Assembly (NCBI GenBank): GCA_023382175.1 | Contig: JAMCQB010000154.1 | Span: 1 to 42,687 of the forward strand | Direction of reading: 5' to 3' | DNA length: 42,687 nucleotides | Source of the DNA: Nitrospirota bacterium | GTDB lineage: Bacteria > Nitrospirota > Thermodesulfovibrionia > Thermodesulfovibrionales > UBA9159 | In this document: piece by piece, positions 3,410 through 12,844 of the stretch | Numbering within the stretch: position 1 is the stretch's first letter | Layout of the letters: every line of letters begins with the position of its first letter | Translations under genes and position numbers: made by a program | Notes under the pieces: generated by a model | Seen by the model: only the letters and a program-made list of their open reading frames with translations | What the model was told of the DNA's origin: nothing | Databases searched by the model: none

Positions 3410-4084
3410 CTAAAGGTGATCACTCCCTTCCTTATAGAGGTTATGAGAAATTATAAAGGATTCCACACTCTCTGGCAACAGGTATTTTATGCTCATCCCC
3501 TGTTTCACAAGCCTTCGGATAACAGTCGCGGATATATCCAAGGGGGTGACGTTCATGAGGAAGACCTCTCCGCCATTCTCAAGGACGGTCCTGTATACGT
3601 TGAGGTGACCGCTTTCCAGGGCTGAAAATGCCTCTGCATCCACGGCGACCCGGGAAGAAAGCCGCATGAAACTGAAGCCCGGCCGTGACACCACCACGAA
3701 ATGAGTGAGTTCCATGAGTCTTTCCGGATGATACCATAATGGGATATCGAGAAATGCATCGATCCCCAGAATGAAATAGAATTTCTTCCCGGGATGCATC
3801 TCCCGCAACGCAATGAGCGTATCCACCGTGTAAGACTTCCCGGTCTTTTTGCACTCAATATCAGAGATTTCGAAGGACGGATTCGACGCTATGGCAAGCC
3901 TGGTCATCTCGTGCCGGTATTCTGCTGAAGCCAGTTCCAGATCCTTCAGCGGAGGATTCCCCGAGGGAATAAAGAGTATCTTTTCGAGGCCGATACGCTC
4001 CCTCACTTCCTCGGATACCCTGAGGTGTCCATAATGCACGGGATTAAATGTCCCGCCCAGTATACCGATCCTGCCTTTGCCCAT
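3410..4084 (-). CDS. nadD: Nicotinate-nucleotide adenylyltransferase
   Basis: GILGGTFNPVHYGHLRVSEEV nucleotidyltransferase motif, FILGIDAF, and C-terminal ISATVIRR. Confidence 0.93.
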   Translation of the reverse strand: MGKGRIGILGGTFNPVHYGHLRVSEEVRERIGLEKILFIPSGNPPLKDLELASAEYRHEMTRLAIASNPSFEISDIECKKTGKSYTVDTLIALREMHPGKKFYFILGIDAFLDIPLWYHPERLMELTHFVVVSRPGFSFMRLSSRVAVDAEAFSALESGHLNVYRTVLENGGEVFLMNVTPLDISATVIRRLVKQGMSIKYLLPESVESFIISHNLYKEGSDHL

Positions 4085-4089
4085 AATGG

Positions 4090-5058
4090 CTATTTTTCTT
4101 TTTTCCCGAAGACCAGCACCGTATCATCCATCATTGCATTCCTGATATCCCTGAATCCGGTTTTGGCAAGCCACTTTTTGATTTCTGACGACGAATAGCA
4201 CCTTCCCGCCGGGGTATTTACGAGCATATTCACGGAAAACAGTGCGCTCGAAGCCGGATGAGCCCTGTCCTTTTTGAGATAGAATTCCTGAACCACAATC
4301 CTTCCGCCGGCATTCAGGGCATCCCTGGATTTCTCGATGAGCTGCAGACTCTCCTCCTCCGAGCAGGAGTGGAGCACCTGACTGATGAAGATGAGATTAT
4401 AGTCCCTGCCTATGTCATCATGAAGAAAATCTCCCTGAAGAAAGCCGATATTTCTATTTCTCACCCCGGCCCTCCTGATGACGGACCTTGCTATGTCCAC
4501 GGTCTCCTGCCTGTCAAAAAGGGTCACAGAAATTCCCTTTTTGGCCATTTCCATTGCGTAGGTCCCCGGGCCTCCCCCCAGGTCCAGCACTTTTTTCACA
4601 CCGCGCAATCCTACAGCATTGATAACCTTTCTGGCCTTGAATACCGCAAGGTTATGCATGCCCTTGATAAAGGAGGGGTGGTCATGGGCAACGTGATGGG
4701 GTTTCCCTGTTTTTACGACCTCGTCAAGACCGGACCAGTTCTTCCAGAGGGCATCTGCGTGTCGCAGGATATCGCCCTGGTAAAAGGGACTTTCTGCCGT
4801 AAGAAAACGTCTGGCCAGTGAGGTGTTCTTGTAGCGCAAGGAGGCTTTTCTTAAGAGACCAAGCCCTGTCAACGCATCGAGGAGCATCTCCGTTGCCCGT
4901 CTGTCAGTCCTTAGAATACCGGACAACTCCTGGGCTGTTTTCGGGGATTTCAGATGTTCAAAGGCCCGGTAGTTATTTGCGGTCAGTATCACCCTCGATG
5001 ACCAGAAGCCGCTCCATGTCTTTCTGAGTTCCTTAGCCTGCTCGACAATGTTCGCCAT
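4090..5058 (-). CDS. SAM-dependent O-methyltransferase family protein
   Basis: N-terminal winged-helix/dimerization region; VLDLGGGPGTYAMEMAKKG SAM motif; FISQVLHSCSEEES. Confidence 0.8.
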   Translation of the reverse strand: MANIVEQAKELRKTWSGFWSSRVILTANNYRAFEHLKSPKTAQELSGILRTDRRATEMLLDALTGLGLLRKASLRYKNTSLARRFLTAESPFYQGDILRHADALWKNWSGLDEVVKTGKPHHVAHDHPSFIKGMHNLAVFKARKVINAVGLRGVKKVLDLGGGPGTYAMEMAKKGISVTLFDRQETVDIARSVIRRAGVRNRNIGFLQGDFLHDDIGRDYNLIFISQVLHSCSEEESLQLIEKSRDALNAGGRIVVQEFYLKKDRAHPASSALFSVNMLVNTPAGRCYSSSEIKKWLAKTGFRDIRNAMMDDTVLVFGKKEK

Positions 5059-5492: not shown

Positions 5493-6839
5493 TTATACTT
5501 CCCGAGACTCCTCGGATAAAAGGTTCAGATTCCTCGGCTTCTGGTCTAGCTGTTCGAGGACCGGGATCTCTTCGGCTCCTGTAGCCCCGAGCTCTTTGAA
5601 TTTCCTCATCGATGGCAATACCCGGGCTTCCATGGACCCGACAATCCGGTTGTACGCGTCCAGGGATCTTCCTATGGCGGTCCCCAGTTCGTCGAAATAC
5701 TTTGCAAGGGTTCTCATCCTTTCATAGAGTTCCTTGCCGAGGGCGCTTATTTCCTGGGCATTTTTCGTAATATGCTCCTGCCTCCAGCCGTATGCAATGG
5801 CCCTGAGCAGTGCAATAAAGGTGGTCGGTGTTGCGATGATGACCCGCTTCTGTATCCCGTCCTCTATGAGGGTAGTGTCGGTTTCCAGGGCTGAACTCAA
5901 GAAGGACTCTCCGGGGATGAAGAGCACAACAAATTCGGGAGACTGCTGGAACTGGGCCCAGTATTCCTTTGATGCGAGCTTGTTCATATGAGTCCTCACC
6001 TGTTGCGCATGCTTCTCCATCTTCATCTTTCTTTCGTCTTCCACGGGAGCTGATATGGCGTCGAGGTATGCTTCCAGGGATACCTTTGCATCAACAACAA
6101 TCTCCCTGTCCATGGGGAGATGCACCACCATGTCCGGTCTGATCCTTCCCTTGTCAGTATCCACGGACTGCTGTTCACTGAAATCACAGTGCATGGACAT
6201 CCCTGAGAGCTCGGCGACCCTTCTCAGTTGCATTTCTCCCCACCGGCCGCGCACCTGGGGCTTTCTCAGGGCAGAGACAAGGTTGCTCGTTTCCTTCTGG
6301 AGATTTTCATGGGTTAATGCCAACGCCCTCAGTTGCTCCTCAAGACTTCCGTATGCCTTGTGCCTGCTCTCCTCAATAGTCCGTATCTGTTCTTCATATC
6401 TCTTGAGGGTCTCATAGAGCGGCTTTATCATTCCGTCCAGTGCGGCCTGATGCTCCCCCAGTTTCCCTTTGGTGTCCGATACCACTTTGCCGAGGTGCTC
6501 GGAGGCAAGCCTCAAGAAATCCTCACTGCTGCTCTTCAGTGCCGCCGAGGAAAGGGCATTGAAGGTGTCGGTCATCTCTTTCTTCATGGCATCAATGAGG
6601 GCTTTCTGTTCCTCGAAGCTCTTCTGGGATTCTTTCAGGCTGGTGAGGGCCTCAATCTTCAGGTGTCCCTCATTCTGGAGTTCTTTCCGCACCTGCTGTA
6701 TCTCAGAGTCCCTCTGCTGGATTTGCTGCCTCAATAGGGTATTCACAGCTTCAGCACTTTTTGCTTTTGAAGACGCAAAAAGCCAGGCCACAACTCCGCC
6801 GATTATCAGTCCAACCAAACCATATAGCATTATTTCCAT
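5493..6839 (-). CDS. rmuC: RmuC family DNA recombination protein
   Basis: N-terminal TM, coiled coil, VRGRWGEMQLRRVAELSGM, RIRPDMVVHLP, VVDAKVSLEAYL, VVLFIPGESFLSSAL. Confidence 0.92.
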   Translation of the reverse strand: MEIMLYGLVGLIIGGVVAWLFASSKAKSAEAVNTLLRQQIQQRDSEIQQVRKELQNEGHLKIEALTSLKESQKSFEEQKALIDAMKKEMTDTFNALSSAALKSSSEDFLRLASEHLGKVVSDTKGKLGEHQAALDGMIKPLYETLKRYEEQIRTIEESRHKAYGSLEEQLRALALTHENLQKETSNLVSALRKPQVRGRWGEMQLRRVAELSGMSMHCDFSEQQSVDTDKGRIRPDMVVHLPMDREIVVDAKVSLEAYLDAISAPVEDERKMKMEKHAQQVRTHMNKLASKEYWAQFQQSPEFVVLFIPGESFLSSALETDTTLIEDGIQKRVIIATPTTFIALLRAIAYGWRQEHITKNAQEISALGKELYERMRTLAKYFDELGTAIGRSLDAYNRIVGSMEARVLPSMRKFKELGATGAEEIPVLEQLDQKPRNLNLLSEESREV

Positions 6840-6854: not shown

Positions 6855-7421
6855 CTATACTTTCTCATACACCCACACCCTCCCGCCGTTCTTCATTTCA
6901 TCTATTCGTTTCACAAGCCGCTTCTTGTGCAAATTCAGTAATCTTGTTCCGCTGGTATTCGCGGGGACTTTAAGCATCTCAGAAAGTTCGCCGCCGGTGA
7001 TCTTGCCTTTTTCGAGTATCAGATCGAGGGTCTTCTGTAAATAATTATTCAGGCTTCCGATGAGTACTCTGCTCCCGTCCCTCATCTCCGCCATGACTGC
7101 CAGGTCTTTTCTCTCAAGAGCAACCTCTATGTTCTCCTTCTGGTTCTCGTTGAGACCGGTGAGGACGATATATTTGTCACCATACTCACCGCTTAAGAGC
7201 CTCGAAATAAGCTTCGCTACTATCTCGTCAGCGCAGGAATAGTCAACAACGCCGATCTTCGAGAAATCAAGGGCAATGATCGAACCGTCCTTCTCCTGTG
7301 CAATATCTCTCTCGATGCGCTCCCGTATAACCTGCCCCGACTGCCGCGTCACCAGATCACTGAAACCGTTTTTCAGTTCTTCCTTGAGGAGTTTATAGAG
7401 GTTGTAGGTGGTCATTTTCAA
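6855..7421 (-). CDS. STAS-like (DUF4325-type) protein with C-terminal winged-helix-like region
   Basis: IIALDFSKIGVVDYSCADEIVAKLISRLLSG STAS-like core; C-terminal GKITGGELSEMLKVPANTSGTRLLNLHKKRLVKRI resembles wHTH. Confidence 0.65.
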   Translation of the reverse strand: MKMTTYNLYKLLKEELKNGFSDLVTRQSGQVIRERIERDIAQEKDGSIIALDFSKIGVVDYSCADEIVAKLISRLLSGEYGDKYIVLTGLNENQKENIEVALERKDLAVMAEMRDGSRVLIGSLNNYLQKTLDLILEKGKITGGELSEMLKVPANTSGTRLLNLHKKRLVKRIDEMKNGGRVWVYEKV

Positions 7422-7448: not shown

Positions 7449-8033
7449 TTATCTTCTCCTTACCTGTTGGCGCACATGATAAAGTTTCTCTGTGAACCCG
7501 CCTTCTTCCAAGAATTGTTTTTCCAGCTGACGCAGTTGCTGGTCAAGCAGATAATTTGCCTGATGAATCATGCAGATAAGGGCATTGGCAGCCACTTCAG
7601 GAGACGCTTTTTCAATATAGGTCTCATAAGTCTCATATGACCTATTCTTTTCCCAAGCAAGCTTTCGAATAGTTTGCGCCTGCGGATGCTCCTTCTCCCA
7701 CAGCAGCAGTCCCCGCTGACGCAAGAAATCATGGTAGTCGAGCAGTAGTTCTTCCAGACTTGCGCGGGCTACGCCGATCAGTTTGAGTTCGCTTTTCTTT
7801 GAAGTGCCGGACACCATACTGCCTTCGGCAATATTCTGCTTGCCGCTACGCGAAGCCTGTACCATCTGGTCATGAGTGCGCGAGCGTTTATCAATAAAGA
7901 GATTACAAAATGCAGTTGTGGCATCATAGATGATTTCAGCAGTCTGATAAGATTTCAGACTGCGATATCCTCCGTGGGGACTGATAAGAGCTGATCTTGT
8001 CTCTTCATTCTTTATGTTCATTATGTCGTTCAA
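7449..8033 (-). CDS. Four-helix-bundle (23S rRNA IVS/Avd-like) protein
   Basis: DQMVQASRSGKQNIAEGSMVSGTSKKSELKLIGVARASLEELLLDYHDFLR matches the four-helix-bundle family. Confidence 0.8.
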   Translation of the reverse strand: MNDIMNIKNEETRSALISPHGGYRSLKSYQTAEIIYDATTAFCNLFIDKRSRTHDQMVQASRSGKQNIAEGSMVSGTSKKSELKLIGVARASLEELLLDYHDFLRQRGLLLWEKEHPQAQTIRKLAWEKNRSYETYETYIEKASPEVAANALICMIHQANYLLDQQLRQLEKQFLEEGGFTEKLYHVRQQVRRR

Positions 8034-8176
8034 AAGTCCTCTTACGCCATCACTCCACTTTCCTTCTTAAGCTCAACCATCCTCCGGCTGTCGCAAATGA
8101 TTATGGTGGTGATAGTTTCTGCAACACTCACCCTATTGGACCGTCCCCTTTTTGCCTCATTAACAATAAAACTTTG

Positions 8177-8320
8177 TTAGACATCCTCTTCTCTAGACTG
8201 TTCTATAGTGATTATCTCCTTTGGACTGTCTGCATAATCAACCGGTTTCAGAGGATAAGGCATTGGTTTGGCCGGCTGTAATTTTTCAGGTTGTTTTGCC
8301 TCTTTCTTTTTATCACTCAT
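8177..8320 (-). CDS. Small hypothetical protein (47 aa)
   Basis: Hand-translated MSDKKKEAKQPEKLQPAKPMPYPLKPVDYADSPKEIITIEQSREEDV*; its ATG overlaps the upstream ORF's stop by 8 nt. Not in the ORF track. Confidence 0.5.
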   Translation of the reverse strand: MSDKKKEAKQPEKLQPAKPMPYPLKPVDYADSPKEIITIEQSREEDV

Positions 8321-8510
8321 TTGACTCCTCCACATTTGAATTAGAGGTTTTGCTTCCTACAAGCCTGACTGTTCCATAGCTCTTTGACTTAGACGGATTT
8401 AGACTCTTCTGAACAGGCTCTGTACCATAGCTTTGCGGTTTATTCTGGTCACTATCGCCTGAATCTTGCTGTGGGTTGTTAGCTCCTTGGTCTTTTTCTT
8501 CGTCATTCAT
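8313..8510 (-). CDS. Small low-complexity hypothetical protein (65 aa)
   Basis: Tightly packed between neighbours; internal near-repeat PQSYGTEP / SKSYGTVR. Confidence 0.5.
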   Translation of the reverse strand: MNDEEKDQGANNPQQDSGDSDQNKPQSYGTEPVQKSLNPSKSKSYGTVRLVGSKTSNSNVEESNE

Positions 8511-8513
8511 AAC

Positions 8514-9041
8514 TTACCTCCATAAGCAGAGATTTCTTGTATTTATCCAAAAAATGGTGAATAGAACGAGAAAAACTATAAATGAAGAGATCATAACAAA
8601 AAAAGTTCCTTTTCTAAATTTGTCAGCCATATCATCAACAGTCAACCTATTGTCCTTTAATGCCTCTTCGTATGTAGTAATTAATCTGCTTTCAACTTCA
8701 ACTGGTTTCTTTTCTAATTCTGAATTAAAAACGAGCGCCTCGGATTTAATTCTTTTAAAAAGTCTTATCTGAATAACTTTCAAAAAAATAATGATAGAAA
8801 TGACAATGATCAATGCAGCGAGCGATAATAACGTTGTGTTTAAACTGATAAGCCAGCCATTTTCGCTTATTGTCTTAAGAAGAAAAGTTATGGCGGCTAA
8901 TAAAATACCCGCAACAGTTAACATCATTTGAACTTTAGTTATTATGTATTTGTTCCTACCTTCTTCTGCTTCGAATTCTTTCTGTAGAATATTCAGCACA
9001 GTTCTCACAGTCTCAGGATTGTATTTTGGTTCTTCAGCCAT
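8514..9041 (-). CDS. Multi-TM hypothetical protein with cytoplasmic linker
   Basis: Three strongly hydrophobic segments (MMLTVAGILLAAITFLL; LLSLAALIIVISIIIFL; FFVMISSFIVFLVLFTIFWI). Confidence 0.65.
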   Translation of the reverse strand: MAEEPKYNPETVRTVLNILQKEFEAEEGRNKYIITKVQMMLTVAGILLAAITFLLKTISENGWLISLNTTLLSLAALIIVISIIIFLKVIQIRLFKRIKSEALVFNSELEKKPVEVESRLITTYEEALKDNRLTVDDMADKFRKGTFFVMISSFIVFLVLFTIFWINTRNLCLWR

Positions 9042-9291
9042 TTATCTTCTCAAAATGTACGATATTATTGGGCTCGTTCTCATGCACATCCTGTAGGATC
9101 TCAATAAGCTCAATCAATCCCCAGAGTTCGCTGAGATTTTCATTAGGTATGTTCGATGACTTCACACTAAGAGGCAAAGTGGGCAACAGTTTTTCAAGAG
9201 TCTTTTTCTGTTGTTTCAACAGCTTCCAGTCAATATTTTCGATGGCTTCTTGATAATTTCTATATTGCATCAACGCCCTGAAATTTCTCAT
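9034..9291 (-). CDS. Small hypothetical protein (85 aa)
   Basis: ORF overlaps the downstream gene by 8 bp and starts 8 bp after the MTase stop; operon-like packing. Confidence 0.55.
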   Translation of the reverse strand: MRNFRALMQYRNYQEAIENIDWKLLKQQKKTLEKLLPTLPLSVKSSNIPNENLSELWGLIELIEILQDVHENEPNNIVHFEKING

Positions 9292-9299
9292 AAAGTCCT

Positions 9300-11456
9300 C
9301 TACTCAAGACCGTATGCTTTGATCTCTTCGTCACTGAGCATTTCATTTGGAACAGTGCGATAGTGCTTCTCGTCCTTGATCGAAATCTCGCCTTCACTTC
9401 GTTCGAACTCGAACAGGGCGATCAAGCCACCCTCCATAAACTGAGCAGCAACTGGTCGGCAGATGAGCGACGGGAATTTGGCTTCACAAACCGCCACATC
9501 TTGTTCAATCTGCACTATTCCTATTTGTTCATTTCTCCCTTTCGCTTGCACGGGGATTGCAAACTGTTGTCCTTGTTTATTAACGCCGACATAGATCTCA
9601 TCAGTCTCTACCTGGCCCATACCCGGAGCGGTCGTTCGCAAATGGCTCTGAAGCGAATAGCATGTAACCCCTAAAAAGGTGTCAATGAGGCGATTGTAGC
9701 GAAGGATTGCGAGCAAAGCCTGCTCATCATTTAAGGCATAGCGGCGAATGATTTCCGGTGTCGCATCCAACACTTTTATCTTTGTAAGCCTGGGATTAGG
9801 GGTGATTCGATGAATTTGACTTTTTGAGAATTGATACTTGCCGCGCCCAATTGAACGAATAATCCATTCTTCGCCTTTGGAAAGAAGATCCCTGATCCTC
9901 CCAGGCAGCTCATTTCGATACCTATATGAATAGATAATGTCTCCCAGGTTCTTAGGGAGTTTTATTTTAAGTCTCTTGGATGCTTTTTCGAATTCTTCGC
10001 GATCAAAAGTTACTTCAGTGGTTCCTTCTGAATAGTTTTTGAAGAATACTTCTTCAATTAACACATCATAGCGATTTTTTTCCTCTGACATACCTTCCTC
10101 CAATGGAGATGATTCAATCTTAAGAGACCGATTACTGTCAAACCCCTTCCATTCGAACATAACGACCTCTTCGCGCAACTGCTGCCTGGTTGCGGTGGCC
10201 AGCCTCGTCCTAAAGAGATCAATTCCCAACACTCTATAACCAAGCTCTGTTGCAATGTCGGCCAGTAGCTCACCCGTCGGTATCAGTACCTGCAAATATG
10301 ACGCCTGGTCTCCAACGACATACGCCAACTTGGCTCCGGGTTTTAGTATGTTCCTCAAGTCTGCCAAATGTCGCTTAATGCCGCCAAAATATAATCTTGC
10401 CACCCGATGGTAAAGCCTCTCGAATCCAGAGGTTTTATTTAATGCGATGCGTCTTCGTTCAATCTCACGTGCAAGACGATCAATTTTACTACCTGTGGGT
10501 ATCAGGTCATCGTCCCTGTCAGCAGCAAACACGTTTCGCGTATTCGACCTGAGTAAGCTTTCCTTTAATTGTCGCAAGTCTTGTCTGCTCCGTAAAAAGC
10601 CCAACAGAGTGGATTCAAGGCGTGTAGTTCGCGTATAATCCTTTTCGTTCGGATATGGGGGCGAAGTTATTACTGCGTCCACAAATGGATTCTCGAATCT
10701 GCTGCCACAATCCCTGGCATCCAACATCAGACACGTTGTCTGTGCGCATTCTCTGTCACGCACGGAAGCCAAGTCGTCACACATCTCAGTCACCTTGCGA
10801 AACCAGTACTCGAAGACCTTTGCATCGCTCTTCTTGCCGTGACTGACACCTACTTCAGGACCGAACTCAAGGTTGCTGGCTTCGTGGACCGATGTGTGAG
10901 CAAATGCTAACCGCAACAAATCTTTGATACGATTATCCTCTATAATGGCTATTTCATCACGTAGAATAAGGCACTTGTGAAGCGGTAACGGGCTGATTGA
11001 ACCTTGCAGAACCACAGACTCTTCGTCTTGTGAAAACCTCCTCAACTGCACGGATTCCCTGTCAAGGATATCTTTAGCGCGCTCGCAAACAGCCGCTGCG
11101 GTATCTCGGATACGAACTGGATCAATATCCCACGTTGTTTTCACTTGTGACGCATACCATGCAACGGGATTAGTTTCAAAACCAACAGCTGGGATTCCCT
11201 GTTTTTTGGCTTCAACCAAGGTCGTACCCGTCCCGCAAAACGGATCGAGTATTGTCATATCGGAGGTCAGTTCCAAAACGTGAATGTAATAAGCGACAAG
11301 ATGAGGGGGAAAAGAGAGAACAAATCGATACCAGTCATGAAATTGTCTATCTGAAGCCGTCATGCGGTTATTTCTGGAATCGCTCGGGTCAAGAATATCC
11401 AGAAAGGTGGCAGCATCTGTTCCAAGGTTTTGCAGTGTCAACTGTTTGATATTCAT
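9300..11456 (-). CDS. DNA methyltransferase fused to endonuclease-like C-terminal domain
   Basis: DPFCGTGTTLVEAKKQGIPAVGFETNP (motif I) and ITSPPYPNEKDYTR (motif IV); C-terminal VETDEIYVGVNKQGQQFAIPVQAKGRNEQIGIVQIEQD resembles a PD-(D/E)XK-type nuclease core. Confidence 0.8.
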   Translation of the reverse strand: MNIKQLTLQNLGTDAATFLDILDPSDSRNNRMTASDRQFHDWYRFVLSFPPHLVAYYIHVLELTSDMTILDPFCGTGTTLVEAKKQGIPAVGFETNPVAWYASQVKTTWDIDPVRIRDTAAAVCERAKDILDRESVQLRRFSQDEESVVLQGSISPLPLHKCLILRDEIAIIEDNRIKDLLRLAFAHTSVHEASNLEFGPEVGVSHGKKSDAKVFEYWFRKVTEMCDDLASVRDRECAQTTCLMLDARDCGSRFENPFVDAVITSPPYPNEKDYTRTTRLESTLLGFLRSRQDLRQLKESLLRSNTRNVFAADRDDDLIPTGSKIDRLAREIERRRIALNKTSGFERLYHRVARLYFGGIKRHLADLRNILKPGAKLAYVVGDQASYLQVLIPTGELLADIATELGYRVLGIDLFRTRLATATRQQLREEVVMFEWKGFDSNRSLKIESSPLEEGMSEEKNRYDVLIEEVFFKNYSEGTTEVTFDREEFEKASKRLKIKLPKNLGDIIYSYRYRNELPGRIRDLLSKGEEWIIRSIGRGKYQFSKSQIHRITPNPRLTKIKVLDATPEIIRRYALNDEQALLAILRYNRLIDTFLGVTCYSLQSHLRTTAPGMGQVETDEIYVGVNKQGQQFAIPVQAKGRNEQIGIVQIEQDVAVCEAKFPSLICRPVAAQFMEGGLIALFEFERSEGEISIKDEKHYRTVPNEMLSDEEIKAYGLE

Positions 11457-11489
11457 TTCAGCAAAACATACCTAAGCTCGTCTTCAATT

Positions 11490-11503
11490 GATTCAATTGA
11501 ATC
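11490..11503. promoter_or_regulatory. 14-bp perfect palindrome upstream of the MTase operon (possible operator)
   Basis: GATTCAATTGAATC is self-complementary, overlaps TTCAATTGA x2, and lies about 34 bp upstream of the ATG. Confidence 0.45.
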
Positions 11504-11561
11504 ATAAAAAGGAAGCTTTGTCAAGAAAAATTTCTGAGCGGCGGAAGAAAGACCAAGAGTT

Positions 11562-12404
11562 CTACACTTCCGGCAGCAGGATGCTGATCTGCGCGCCGGG
11601 GAAAGGGGTGAGATCCAGCTCCTTCTCTTTTCCCCTTGCCCATTTGGGGAGTATGGAAAGCCTTGCCGTCCCCGAGCGTATGGAGAGCTTGCCGTTCCAT
11701 TGATGCACGAATTTCCTCACCGCAGCAAGACCATGTCCCCTCCCCTGGTCAGTGAAGCGGGATGCGCCGTGGAGAAGGGCCTTTTCTATGGCATGGAGAT
11801 CGTTTCTCAGGAGGAACCTGTCGGAGAGGGAATTCATGAAACCGATGCCGGTATCCATGACCGCGATTTTTACGACGTTCTTGTTCAGGTTCTGAAAATG
11901 ATATTTCTGGATCCCCACAAATCCCTTGTTTTCGCTGTGTTCGATGATGTTCTGGCATACTTCTGAAAGAGCTACGATGAAGTCATTTATCGCTTTTTCA
12001 TTATAATGGAGGTGCGTAGTCAGGATTGAATGGGCACGTTCTTTCACTCTGCCGACAATAAAATGTATATCATCAGATTTTTCTATCGGTGTTATCTCAA
12101 GCAAGACATCGGAATAAGAACTCCTCGGGTATTTCCCCGCAATCTCCGGCCTGGCAGGCTCAAGCGTGAAATAATTTCCGGCAAACTTAAAGAAATCCAT
12201 TCTTTCGAGATATCGAAGAACTTCCTCTGATTCGGGGAGGTGGAGGGTTTTTTGAAGTCCCGCCTTTTTGAAAACTTCTCCCATCTCAAGAATGCCGACC
12301 ATCCCATACGGATCAATGAAGGCTGCGTTCCGGAGGTCCAGAACCGAAGACCGCATAAAATGGTCCAGGGCTTTTTCAAAGGTCTCCTCTGTTATCTGTG
12401 TCAT
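11562..12404 (-). CDS. STAS plus HATPase (anti-sigma-factor-type) regulatory protein
   Basis: N-terminal STAS-like LDLRNAAFIDPYGMVGILEMGEVFKKAG; VALSEVCQNIIEHSE N-box and VMDTGIGF G-box. ATG at 12404 overlaps the upstream TGA (ATGA). Confidence 0.7.
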   Translation of the reverse strand: MTQITEETFEKALDHFMRSSVLDLRNAAFIDPYGMVGILEMGEVFKKAGLQKTLHLPESEEVLRYLERMDFFKFAGNYFTLEPARPEIAGKYPRSSYSDVLLEITPIEKSDDIHFIVGRVKERAHSILTTHLHYNEKAINDFIVALSEVCQNIIEHSENKGFVGIQKYHFQNLNKNVVKIAVMDTGIGFMNSLSDRFLLRNDLHAIEKALLHGASRFTDQGRGHGLAAVRKFVHQWNGKLSIRSGTARLSILPKWARGKEKELDLTPFPGAQISILLPEV

Positions 12405-12844
12405 CCTGTCACGTCTCGCTTTCGGCGATTTCGGTGCGGACCAGGGCAAGTATCCCTTAACCTCCGGTAGAGGTCATTTCCCTCGCAAGCCCATCTCCAT
12501 GAGCACGAGTTGCAATAGGCCTGGCGCCATGCCGGAAATATCTCCGGGATTCTTTCCCCTATCTCTGCCCATCTGATCTTCACTCCCCGAGAAAGCTTAA
12601 GGAGGTCCAGCGCCGTCCTGTCCATCTCTCCGATCCCCTTGTCTGCGTCCTCTCTGTACTGACATCTGGTATGGTTCAGGTAAGGACACTTTGCGCAGAT
12701 GTCATCAGCCCCGCAATGTACCTCAATCCCCCTGTCCTGTGCAGACCTGATAACGCGTGTAAGGTTTTCGACGAACTCTTCATTATAGCCTTCTCCTTTA
12801 AAGAAGTGCAGGCATACAAGATGATGTCCTCTCAGCCTCGGCAT
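12401..12844 (-). CDS. DUF1284 family Cys-rich protein
   Basis: MPRLRGHHLVCLHFFKGEGY...CGADDICAKCPYL...CSWRWACEG. Confidence 0.75.
   Translation of the reverse strand: MPRLRGHHLVCLHFFKGEGYNEEFVENLTRVIRSAQDRGIEVHCGADDICAKCPYLNHTRCQYREDADKGIGEMDRTALDLLKLSRGVKIRWAEIGERIPEIFPAWRQAYCNSCSWRWACEGNDLYRRLRDTCPGPHRNRRKRDVTG

What the first reader, a model, noticed from the sequence alone, without database searches (positions are those of the whole stretch)
8177..11456. Compact accessory operon: two tiny proteins, a multi-TM protein, a small ORF and a fused MTase/endonuclease (candidate uncharacterised defence-type system)
Five minus-strand ORFs are packed almost without gaps: 9291/9300 is an 8-bp gap, 9034/9041 an 8-bp overlap, 8510/8514 a 3-bp gap, 8313/8320 an 8-bp overlap. 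The genes between 8.1 and 9.3 kb look AT-richer than the flanks and sit between conserved genes. The lead gene carries DNA-methyltransferase motifs plus a nuclease-like tail. The TM protein and small partners match no R-M subunit I recognise. A modification enzyme with a membrane protein resembles membrane-effector defence architecture, but that function is inference.
Basis: partly seen in the sequence, partly recalled or inferred. Interest (0 to 1): 0.68.

Follow-up and report, generated by a model that had tools for sequence, protein, structure and literature searches.

The report
Inducible restriction operon with membrane module
A bacterial DNA-cutting defence enzyme sits in one operon with four small conserved genes, one for a membrane protein, apparently under a damage-responsive switch; related bacteria keep different restriction systems in the same regulated slot.

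Summary
The five packed genes are real and are not chance packing. The lead gene is an ordinary type II restriction-modification (R-M) system with methyltransferase and endonuclease fused; relatives are widespread, usually as two adjacent genes (73 methyltransferase-only and 60 endonuclease-only ORFs, 10 fused).

The four genes behind it (85-aa protein, 175-aa three-TM protein, two disordered peptides) are a separate conserved module. It is absent from about 80 R-M homologue loci, but its membrane gene occurs in 5 of 231 genomes of the class, each time directly beside R-M genes of different types, and is under purifying selection. No known family matches it.

The whole operon is cargo in a slot. 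A CapK-like kinase gene lies upstream and a CapS-like STAS-winged-helix gene downstream, with one promoter/operator (TTGACA-N17/18-TTCAATTGAATCAATTGAA) between them, found in 29 of 29 loci. Relatives carry MvaI/BcnI-, BglII-, EcoO109I- and type IIG-like systems there; one carries nothing.

Most likely this is an inducible restriction operon, repressed by CapS and released by CapK, with the membrane module as second-line effector (inferred). It is a new variant of CapKS-controlled immunity. No function was tested.

The parts
11562..12449 (-). CapK-like regulator: N-terminal STAS-like part plus GHKL ATPase/kinase domain (295 aa)
   Evidence: HATPase_c E 2.3e-9; 74-76% identical in relatives with invariant N-box EVCQN; no N-terminal HTH seen
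11483..11524 (-). Conserved promoter/operator: TTGACA (11519-11524), 17-bp spacer ending in TGA, 19-bp dyad TTCAATTGA-A-TCAATTGAA (11483-11501) overlapping the -10
   Evidence: Present in 29 of 29 loci examined; nearly always once per genome, none in 5 genomes without the regulator pair
9300..11456 (-). Fused type II R-M enzyme, 718 aa: methyltransferase (residues 1-440; DPFCGTGTT at 71, TSPPYP at 264) and endonuclease (residues 459-715; DE...QAK at 619 and 637)
   Evidence: separate adjacent genes in most relatives, fused in 10
9034..9291 (-). p85: small accessory protein of unknown family, ending EPNNIVHFEKING
   Evidence: 63-64% identical homologue directly before the TM gene in G430; pN 0.18 against pS 0.73
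8514..9041 (-). Three-TM protein of unknown family, 175 aa (TM near 37-55, 72-90, 148-166)
   Evidence: Homologues in 4 other genomes; hydropathy; purifying selection
8313..8510 (-). p65: disordered peptide with two SYGT motifs
   Evidence: Follows the TM gene in all five loci
8177..8320 (-). p47: disordered peptide with KPxPYPL motif
   Evidence: Follows p65 in all five loci; fused in frame to p65 in G201; interrupted by a stop in G242
7449..8033 (-). Four-helix-bundle protein with suffix domain; probable further operon member, not specific to the module
   Evidence: TIGR04258 E 7.8e-23; also in the slot of G090, G276 and G332
6855..7421 (-). CapS-like repressor: STAS (DUF4325) plus winged helix, 188 aa; invariant serine in DYSCADE at residues 60-66
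   Evidence: Profile hits CapS structure 9z72, E 2.5e-4; serine invariant in 22 of 22; STAS plus winged-helix secondary structure in the model

Best explanation
This is an inducible immune operon nested inside a CapK/CapS-type regulatory pair. The CapS-like STAS-winged-helix protein (last gene) binds the 19-bp dyad that overlaps the -10 of the single conserved promoter and keeps the operon low, its own gene included. The CapK-like GHKL kinase, encoded just upstream of the promoter, phosphorylates the invariant STAS serine on a signal such as DNA damage or phage attack and releases the repressor. The cargo is a fused type II R-M enzyme followed by a conserved accessory module (p85, three-TM protein, peptides p65 and p47). 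The R-M enzyme is the first line; the membrane module is proposed as a second-line effector or sensor that acts with whatever R-M system it lies next to. Shown from sequence: gene order, fusion, conservation, operator, homology of the repressor to CapS, hotspot. Inferred: repression, phosphorylation, induction, and the membrane module's function.
For: R-M enzyme. Module conserved in five genomes and each time beside R-M genes of different types, nearest R-M gene or piece 8-99 bp away. Purifying selection. Slot with variable, mostly R-M cargo between kinase and repressor genes. Empty site in G344. Operator in 29 of 29 loci and nearly always once per genome. Repressor is a CapS homologue by profile. 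Published CapK/CapS mechanism, including R-M neighbours and a narrow palindrome between capK and capS: PMC13373217.
Against: No experiment. The kinase lacks the N-terminal HTH of published CapK, so the signal is unknown. In the published set capS always directly follows capK (443 of 443), unlike here. The putative -10 (TTCAAT) is weak and a generic scan misses the promoter. A 143-bp gap separates p47 from the four-helix gene, so co-transcription to the repressor gene is not shown. Three of the five module copies share one hotspot, and two lie elsewhere without the operator. The TM protein has no demonstrable homology to any effector.
Confidence: 0.6

Rival explanations
1. The four-gene module is an independent passenger (for example a stress or toxin-antitoxin-like membrane system) that accumulates in the same defence hotspots as R-M systems but has no functional link to restriction.
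For: It is absent from homologous R-M loci; it lies upstream of some R-M genes and downstream of others; hotspots also hold toxin-antitoxin genes and helicases.
Against: Direct adjacency to R-M genes on the same strand in five of five copies, at three apparently independent sites.
Confidence: 0.3
2. The module modulates restriction itself: the TM protein and peptides tether or restrain the R-M enzyme at the membrane, for example at the site of DNA entry.
For: Adjacent, same-strand genes with different R-M types.
Against: The R-M partners share no obvious common protein surface (type IIG, fused type II, XcyI-type); other R-M slots in the same clade do without the module.
Confidence: 0.1
3. The TM protein is a Pycsar- or SLATT-type effector gated by a nucleotide second messenger.
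For: Same length and three-TM layout as PycTM; weak PADLOC hits (best E 0.0025 to 0.0028 for single members).
Against: No Pfam PycTM hit and no profile-profile similarity; no cyclase or CD-NTase recognised in the window operon or the other module loci.
Confidence: 0.05
4. Chance packing of unrelated short ORFs beside a solitary R-M gene.
For: Homologous R-M genes lack these neighbours.
Against: Conserved gene order and purifying selection across several genera.
Confidence: 0.02

Closest known systems
CapK + CapS controllers of immune operons (Chambers et al., EMBO J 2026, PMC13373217)
   Same: GHKL kinase plus STAS-winged-helix pair; conserved STAS serine; palindrome with half-sites one base apart in the capK-capS interval; neighbouring immune genes, R-M among them (88 of 443 published loci lie just downstream of an R-M system).
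   Different: Here the immune cargo lies between kinase and repressor genes, behind the one operator, instead of before or after an adjacent capK-capS pair; the kinase lacks the N-terminal HTH; the slot holds different R-M systems in different genomes.
Fused type II restriction-modification enzymes
   Same: Methyltransferase and endonuclease in one chain; the same family is widespread as two adjacent genes and is fused in 10 of the loci examined.
   Different: No recognition site is known; nothing unusual found in the enzyme itself.
Alternative R-M systems at one chromosomal locus (DpnI/DpnII in pneumococcus; Dolosigranulum pigrum, PMC8547433)
   Same: Different R-M systems occupy the same chromosomal position in related genomes.
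   Different: Here many unrelated systems share one conserved promoter/operator and lie inside a regulator pair, across several families of a class rather than strains of a species.
Pycsar TM effector PycTM (PF18967)
   Same: About 175 aa, N-terminal helix, two TM, cytosolic part, third TM.
   Different: No significant sequence or profile similarity; no cyclase recognised next to it.

Membership tests
CapK/CapS controller | CapS: STAS domain plus winged helix, homologous to solved CapS | tested here: met
   Profile A10 hits 9z72 (V. cholerae CapS), E 2.5e-4, and weakly 9z71 (E. roggenkampii CapS), E 0.075
CapK/CapS controller | Conserved serine in the CapS STAS domain | tested here: met
   DYSCADE invariant in 22 of 22, at residues 58-67 of each protein; phosphorylation not tested
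CapK/CapS controller | CapK: GHKL kinase domain with catalytic asparagine | tested here: met
   HATPase_c E 2.3e-9; EVCQN invariant
CapK/CapS controller | CapK: N-terminal HTH | tested here: not met
   Protein of 280-295 aa; STAS-like part starts near the N-terminus; no HTH hit
CapK/CapS controller | capS immediately follows capK | tested here: not met
   4.1 kb of cargo between them in the window; adjacent in G344
CapK/CapS controller | Activation of CapK by ssDNA and binding of CapS to the palindrome | not testable with these tools
   Needs biochemistry; only the palindrome itself is shown
Type II R-M system | DNA methyltransferase with SAM-binding and catalytic motifs | tested here: met
   DPFCGTGTT and TSPPYP; alignment A1
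Type II R-M system | Cognate restriction endonuclease | tested here: met
   PDLC03404 E 7e-110; conserved DE...QAK
Type II R-M system | Site-specific cleavage and protective methylation | not testable with these tools
   No assay or methylome
Pycsar effector PycTM | Sequence homology to PF18967 | tested here: not met
   No Pfam PycTM hit in five members; no profile similarity to two PycTM proteins
Pycsar effector PycTM | Three-TM layout of about 175 aa | tested here: met
   Hydropathy and model
Pycsar effector PycTM | Adjacent pyrimidine cyclase gene | tested here: not met
   None recognised in the window operon or the four other module loci

The most novel reading that the evidence does not exclude
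The p85-TM-p65-p47 cassette is a new membrane-effector immune module that teams with restriction systems of any type, killing or arresting the cell when restriction is overrun; and in this lineage R-M systems are plug-in cargo of one fixed, autoregulated CapK/CapS-type slot, so that restriction itself is induced on attack.
Probability: 0.35. Interest if true: 0.78.

Novelty: new variant of a known kind. Interest (0 to 1): 0.57.

Why it matters
If right, it shows restriction-modification, usually thought of as constitutive, as exchangeable cargo of a damage-responsive repressor circuit, with the repressor gene placed last in the operon. The operator is so conserved (29 of 29) that it can be used to find new defence genes: whatever lies between operator and repressor is a candidate. 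It also supplies a concrete, unnamed membrane module to test beside R-M.

Tried and rejected
Pycsar/SLATT membership of the TM protein: weak hits only, rejected on profile tests.

A viral or plasmid origin of the module: no homologue of the TM protein in IMG/VR, phage or plasmid collections, nor of p85 in plasmids or IMG/VR. The promoter/operator pattern has no exact match in viral contigs.

Structure search of the TM model gave no significant match. PDB search with the endonuclease profile gave only a chance-level hit to GTP cyclohydrolase.

The recurring EPNNIVHFEKI stretch was first taken for a DNA repeat or attachment site; most changes lie at synonymous positions, so it is a coding motif in p85 and in gene remnants.

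A paper search for Kpn2kI/SenPI (from memory of similar plasmid enzymes) gave no usable link. Rfam found no RNA. A generic promoter scan finds no more than chance and misses this promoter. Other phyla could not be sampled for the TM module.

In one search one endonuclease comparison was out of frame; it was redone. The low p47 identities for G242 come from an in-frame stop in that copy.

Full report
OBSERVATION. The five ORFs, their coordinates and their tight junctions are confirmed. The low GC of 8.1-9.3 kb is confirmed.

THE LEAD GENE. Residues 1-440 are a DNA methyltransferase (DPFCGTGTT, TSPPYP). Residues 459-715 match PADLOC REase_II PDLC03404 at E 7e-110. In G142 (L003), G187 (L005) and G034 (L006), genomes of the same phylum, the same two proteins are separate adjacent genes (the methyltransferase is cut by the contig end in L006). 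The endonuclease is also paired with cytosine-5 methyltransferases, for instance in G226 (L004), on Paracoccus plasmid p12374 and on small Klebsiella/Salmonella plasmids. The endonuclease family keeps DE and QAK residues at PD-(D/E)XK-like spacing. The fusion is therefore real and recurrent but not the norm. This gene is a new member of a known kind.

THE MODULE. tblastn of p85, TM, p65 and p47 against all R-M loci then held found no convincing homologue. In the class of the window's genome, however, a profile of the TM protein finds five strong hits among 231 genomes: the window, G354, G430, G242 and G201. In each, the TM gene is followed by SYGT-type p65 and KPxPYPL-type p47 sequences. p85 precedes TM, with a start-stop overlap, in the window and G430 only. 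The adjacent R-M genes differ: the fused enzyme in the window; a HSDR_N/N6-methylase/specificity type IIG protein in G430 and G242, and a split one in G354, which also keeps a remnant of this fused enzyme's endonuclease at 71% identity; and a methyltransferase plus XcyI-type endonuclease in G201. The nearest R-M gene or gene piece is 8 to 99 bp away in every case (for G354 the endonuclease remnant, 65 bp before TM). With about 5 to 17 methyltransferase matches per genome of about 2-3 Mb, chance adjacency at three apparently independent sites is very unlikely (rough estimate, inference). TM, p65 and p85 are under purifying selection; p47 is looser and is broken by a stop in G242. None of the four proteins passes a curated threshold in Pfam or NCBIfam or has a significant match in PHROGs or PADLOC.

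THE SLOT. Upstream lies a STAS-like/GHKL protein (11562-12449) and downstream a STAS/winged-helix protein (6855-7421). In G344 these two genes are adjacent. In the window and its relatives with R-M cargo they are separated by about 2.8 to 8 kb of mostly co-directional genes. Cargo identified by family search includes MvaI/BcnI endonuclease with methyltransferase (G116), BglII-type endonuclease with methyltransferase and a PD-T4-6-like kinase (G170), EcoO109I (G142), an Eco57I-like methyltransferase (G227), PDLC03259/PDLC03450 methyltransferase and endonuclease (G262), a further methyltransferase/endonuclease pair (G332), a type IIG enzyme and a weakly SIR2-like protein (G430), and a helicase plus four-helix protein without R-M (G276). 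In a second family (f15) the interval is usually short and holds small genes without R-M; where it is longer (G445, G334), the extra genes lie before the operator.

THE OPERATOR. Every one of 29 loci carries CTTGAC[A/T], a spacer of 17 or 18 bp (26 to the best-scoring of two overlapping dyads in G334), and TTCAATTGAATCAATTGAA or a near copy. In the slots with R-M cargo it lies before the first cargo gene; in the empty site it lies before the repressor gene. Among 28 genomes searched with one mismatch allowed, 22 have it, nearly all once and at this locus; five genomes without the kinase/repressor pair have none, as has G170, whose copy has three mismatches; the reversed pattern gives none. The dyad has 9-bp arms around one central base and overlaps the -10 position, as expected of a repressor site (inference).

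MECHANISM. A profile of 22 STAS/winged-helix proteins hits the solved structure of V. cholerae CapS (9z72, E 2.5e-4) and weakly E. roggenkampii CapS (9z71, E 0.075). Chambers et al. (PMC13373217; [quoted passage not shown] the site between capK and capS is a narrow palindrome with half-sites one base apart. The serine is invariant here, the kinase keeps the N-box, and the operator contains TTGA-a-TCAA. The best explanation is therefore that this operon is repressed by the CapS-like protein and induced through the kinase. Two published features are not met: the kinase has no N-terminal HTH, and kinase and repressor genes are not adjacent. I therefore call it CapK/CapS-like, a nested variant, and do not file it as a member.

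WHAT THE MODULE DOES. The TM protein has the layout of small immune membrane effectors, but no homology to PycTM could be shown. A second-line membrane effector is my leading guess, at about 0.35 to 0.4; a passenger or a modulator of R-M is not excluded.

VERDICT. The R-M gene is ordinary, the module is new and conserved, and the regulatory setting is the most interesting part.

Noticed in passing
L138 10119-10298; L139 5357-5629; L229, L231, L232, L236, L237, L093, L228 and L141 between operator and repressor gene: Several families of small ORFs (60-95 aa; for example SKIIYSINxEDVQNVAEEEL, CDAKFLIVAAEGGKVVEINHFGS, HNEDIKELIAEIPEGHKHLRTT, NLFIDQKADKEPFKGVRKEK) recur beside different R-M genes in these slots, as if shuffled with the cassettes.
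   Followed up: partly
window 9041-9075; L137 about 9990-10060; L093 about 3781-3830; L149 about 6430-6480: The C-terminal motif EPNNIVHFEKI of p85 recurs as gene remnants at the repressor-proximal or R-M-proximal end of other slots, mostly with synonymous differences.
   Followed up: partly
L140 (G344) 3456-4958: In the empty site the kinase and repressor genes are read as one 500-aa ORF that runs through the operator.
   Followed up: no
L137 (G354) 7589-8164; L093 (G227) 780-878: Remnants of the same fused endonuclease remain in the slot of two relatives that now carry other R-M systems, which suggests cargo turnover at one site.
   Followed up: yes
L259 5037-6516 (Janibacter melonis plasmid): A distant DUF4325 protein (24% identity) directly follows a 287-aa hypothetical gene on an actinobacterial plasmid, possibly a related pair.
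   Followed up: no
L227 1085-1966; L229 1687-2544: A protein of about 290 aa beginning MNNILLLYDTQEEDLARDF, of unknown family (no Pfam or PADLOC hit for the L227 copy), precedes the methyltransferase in two slots.
   Followed up: no
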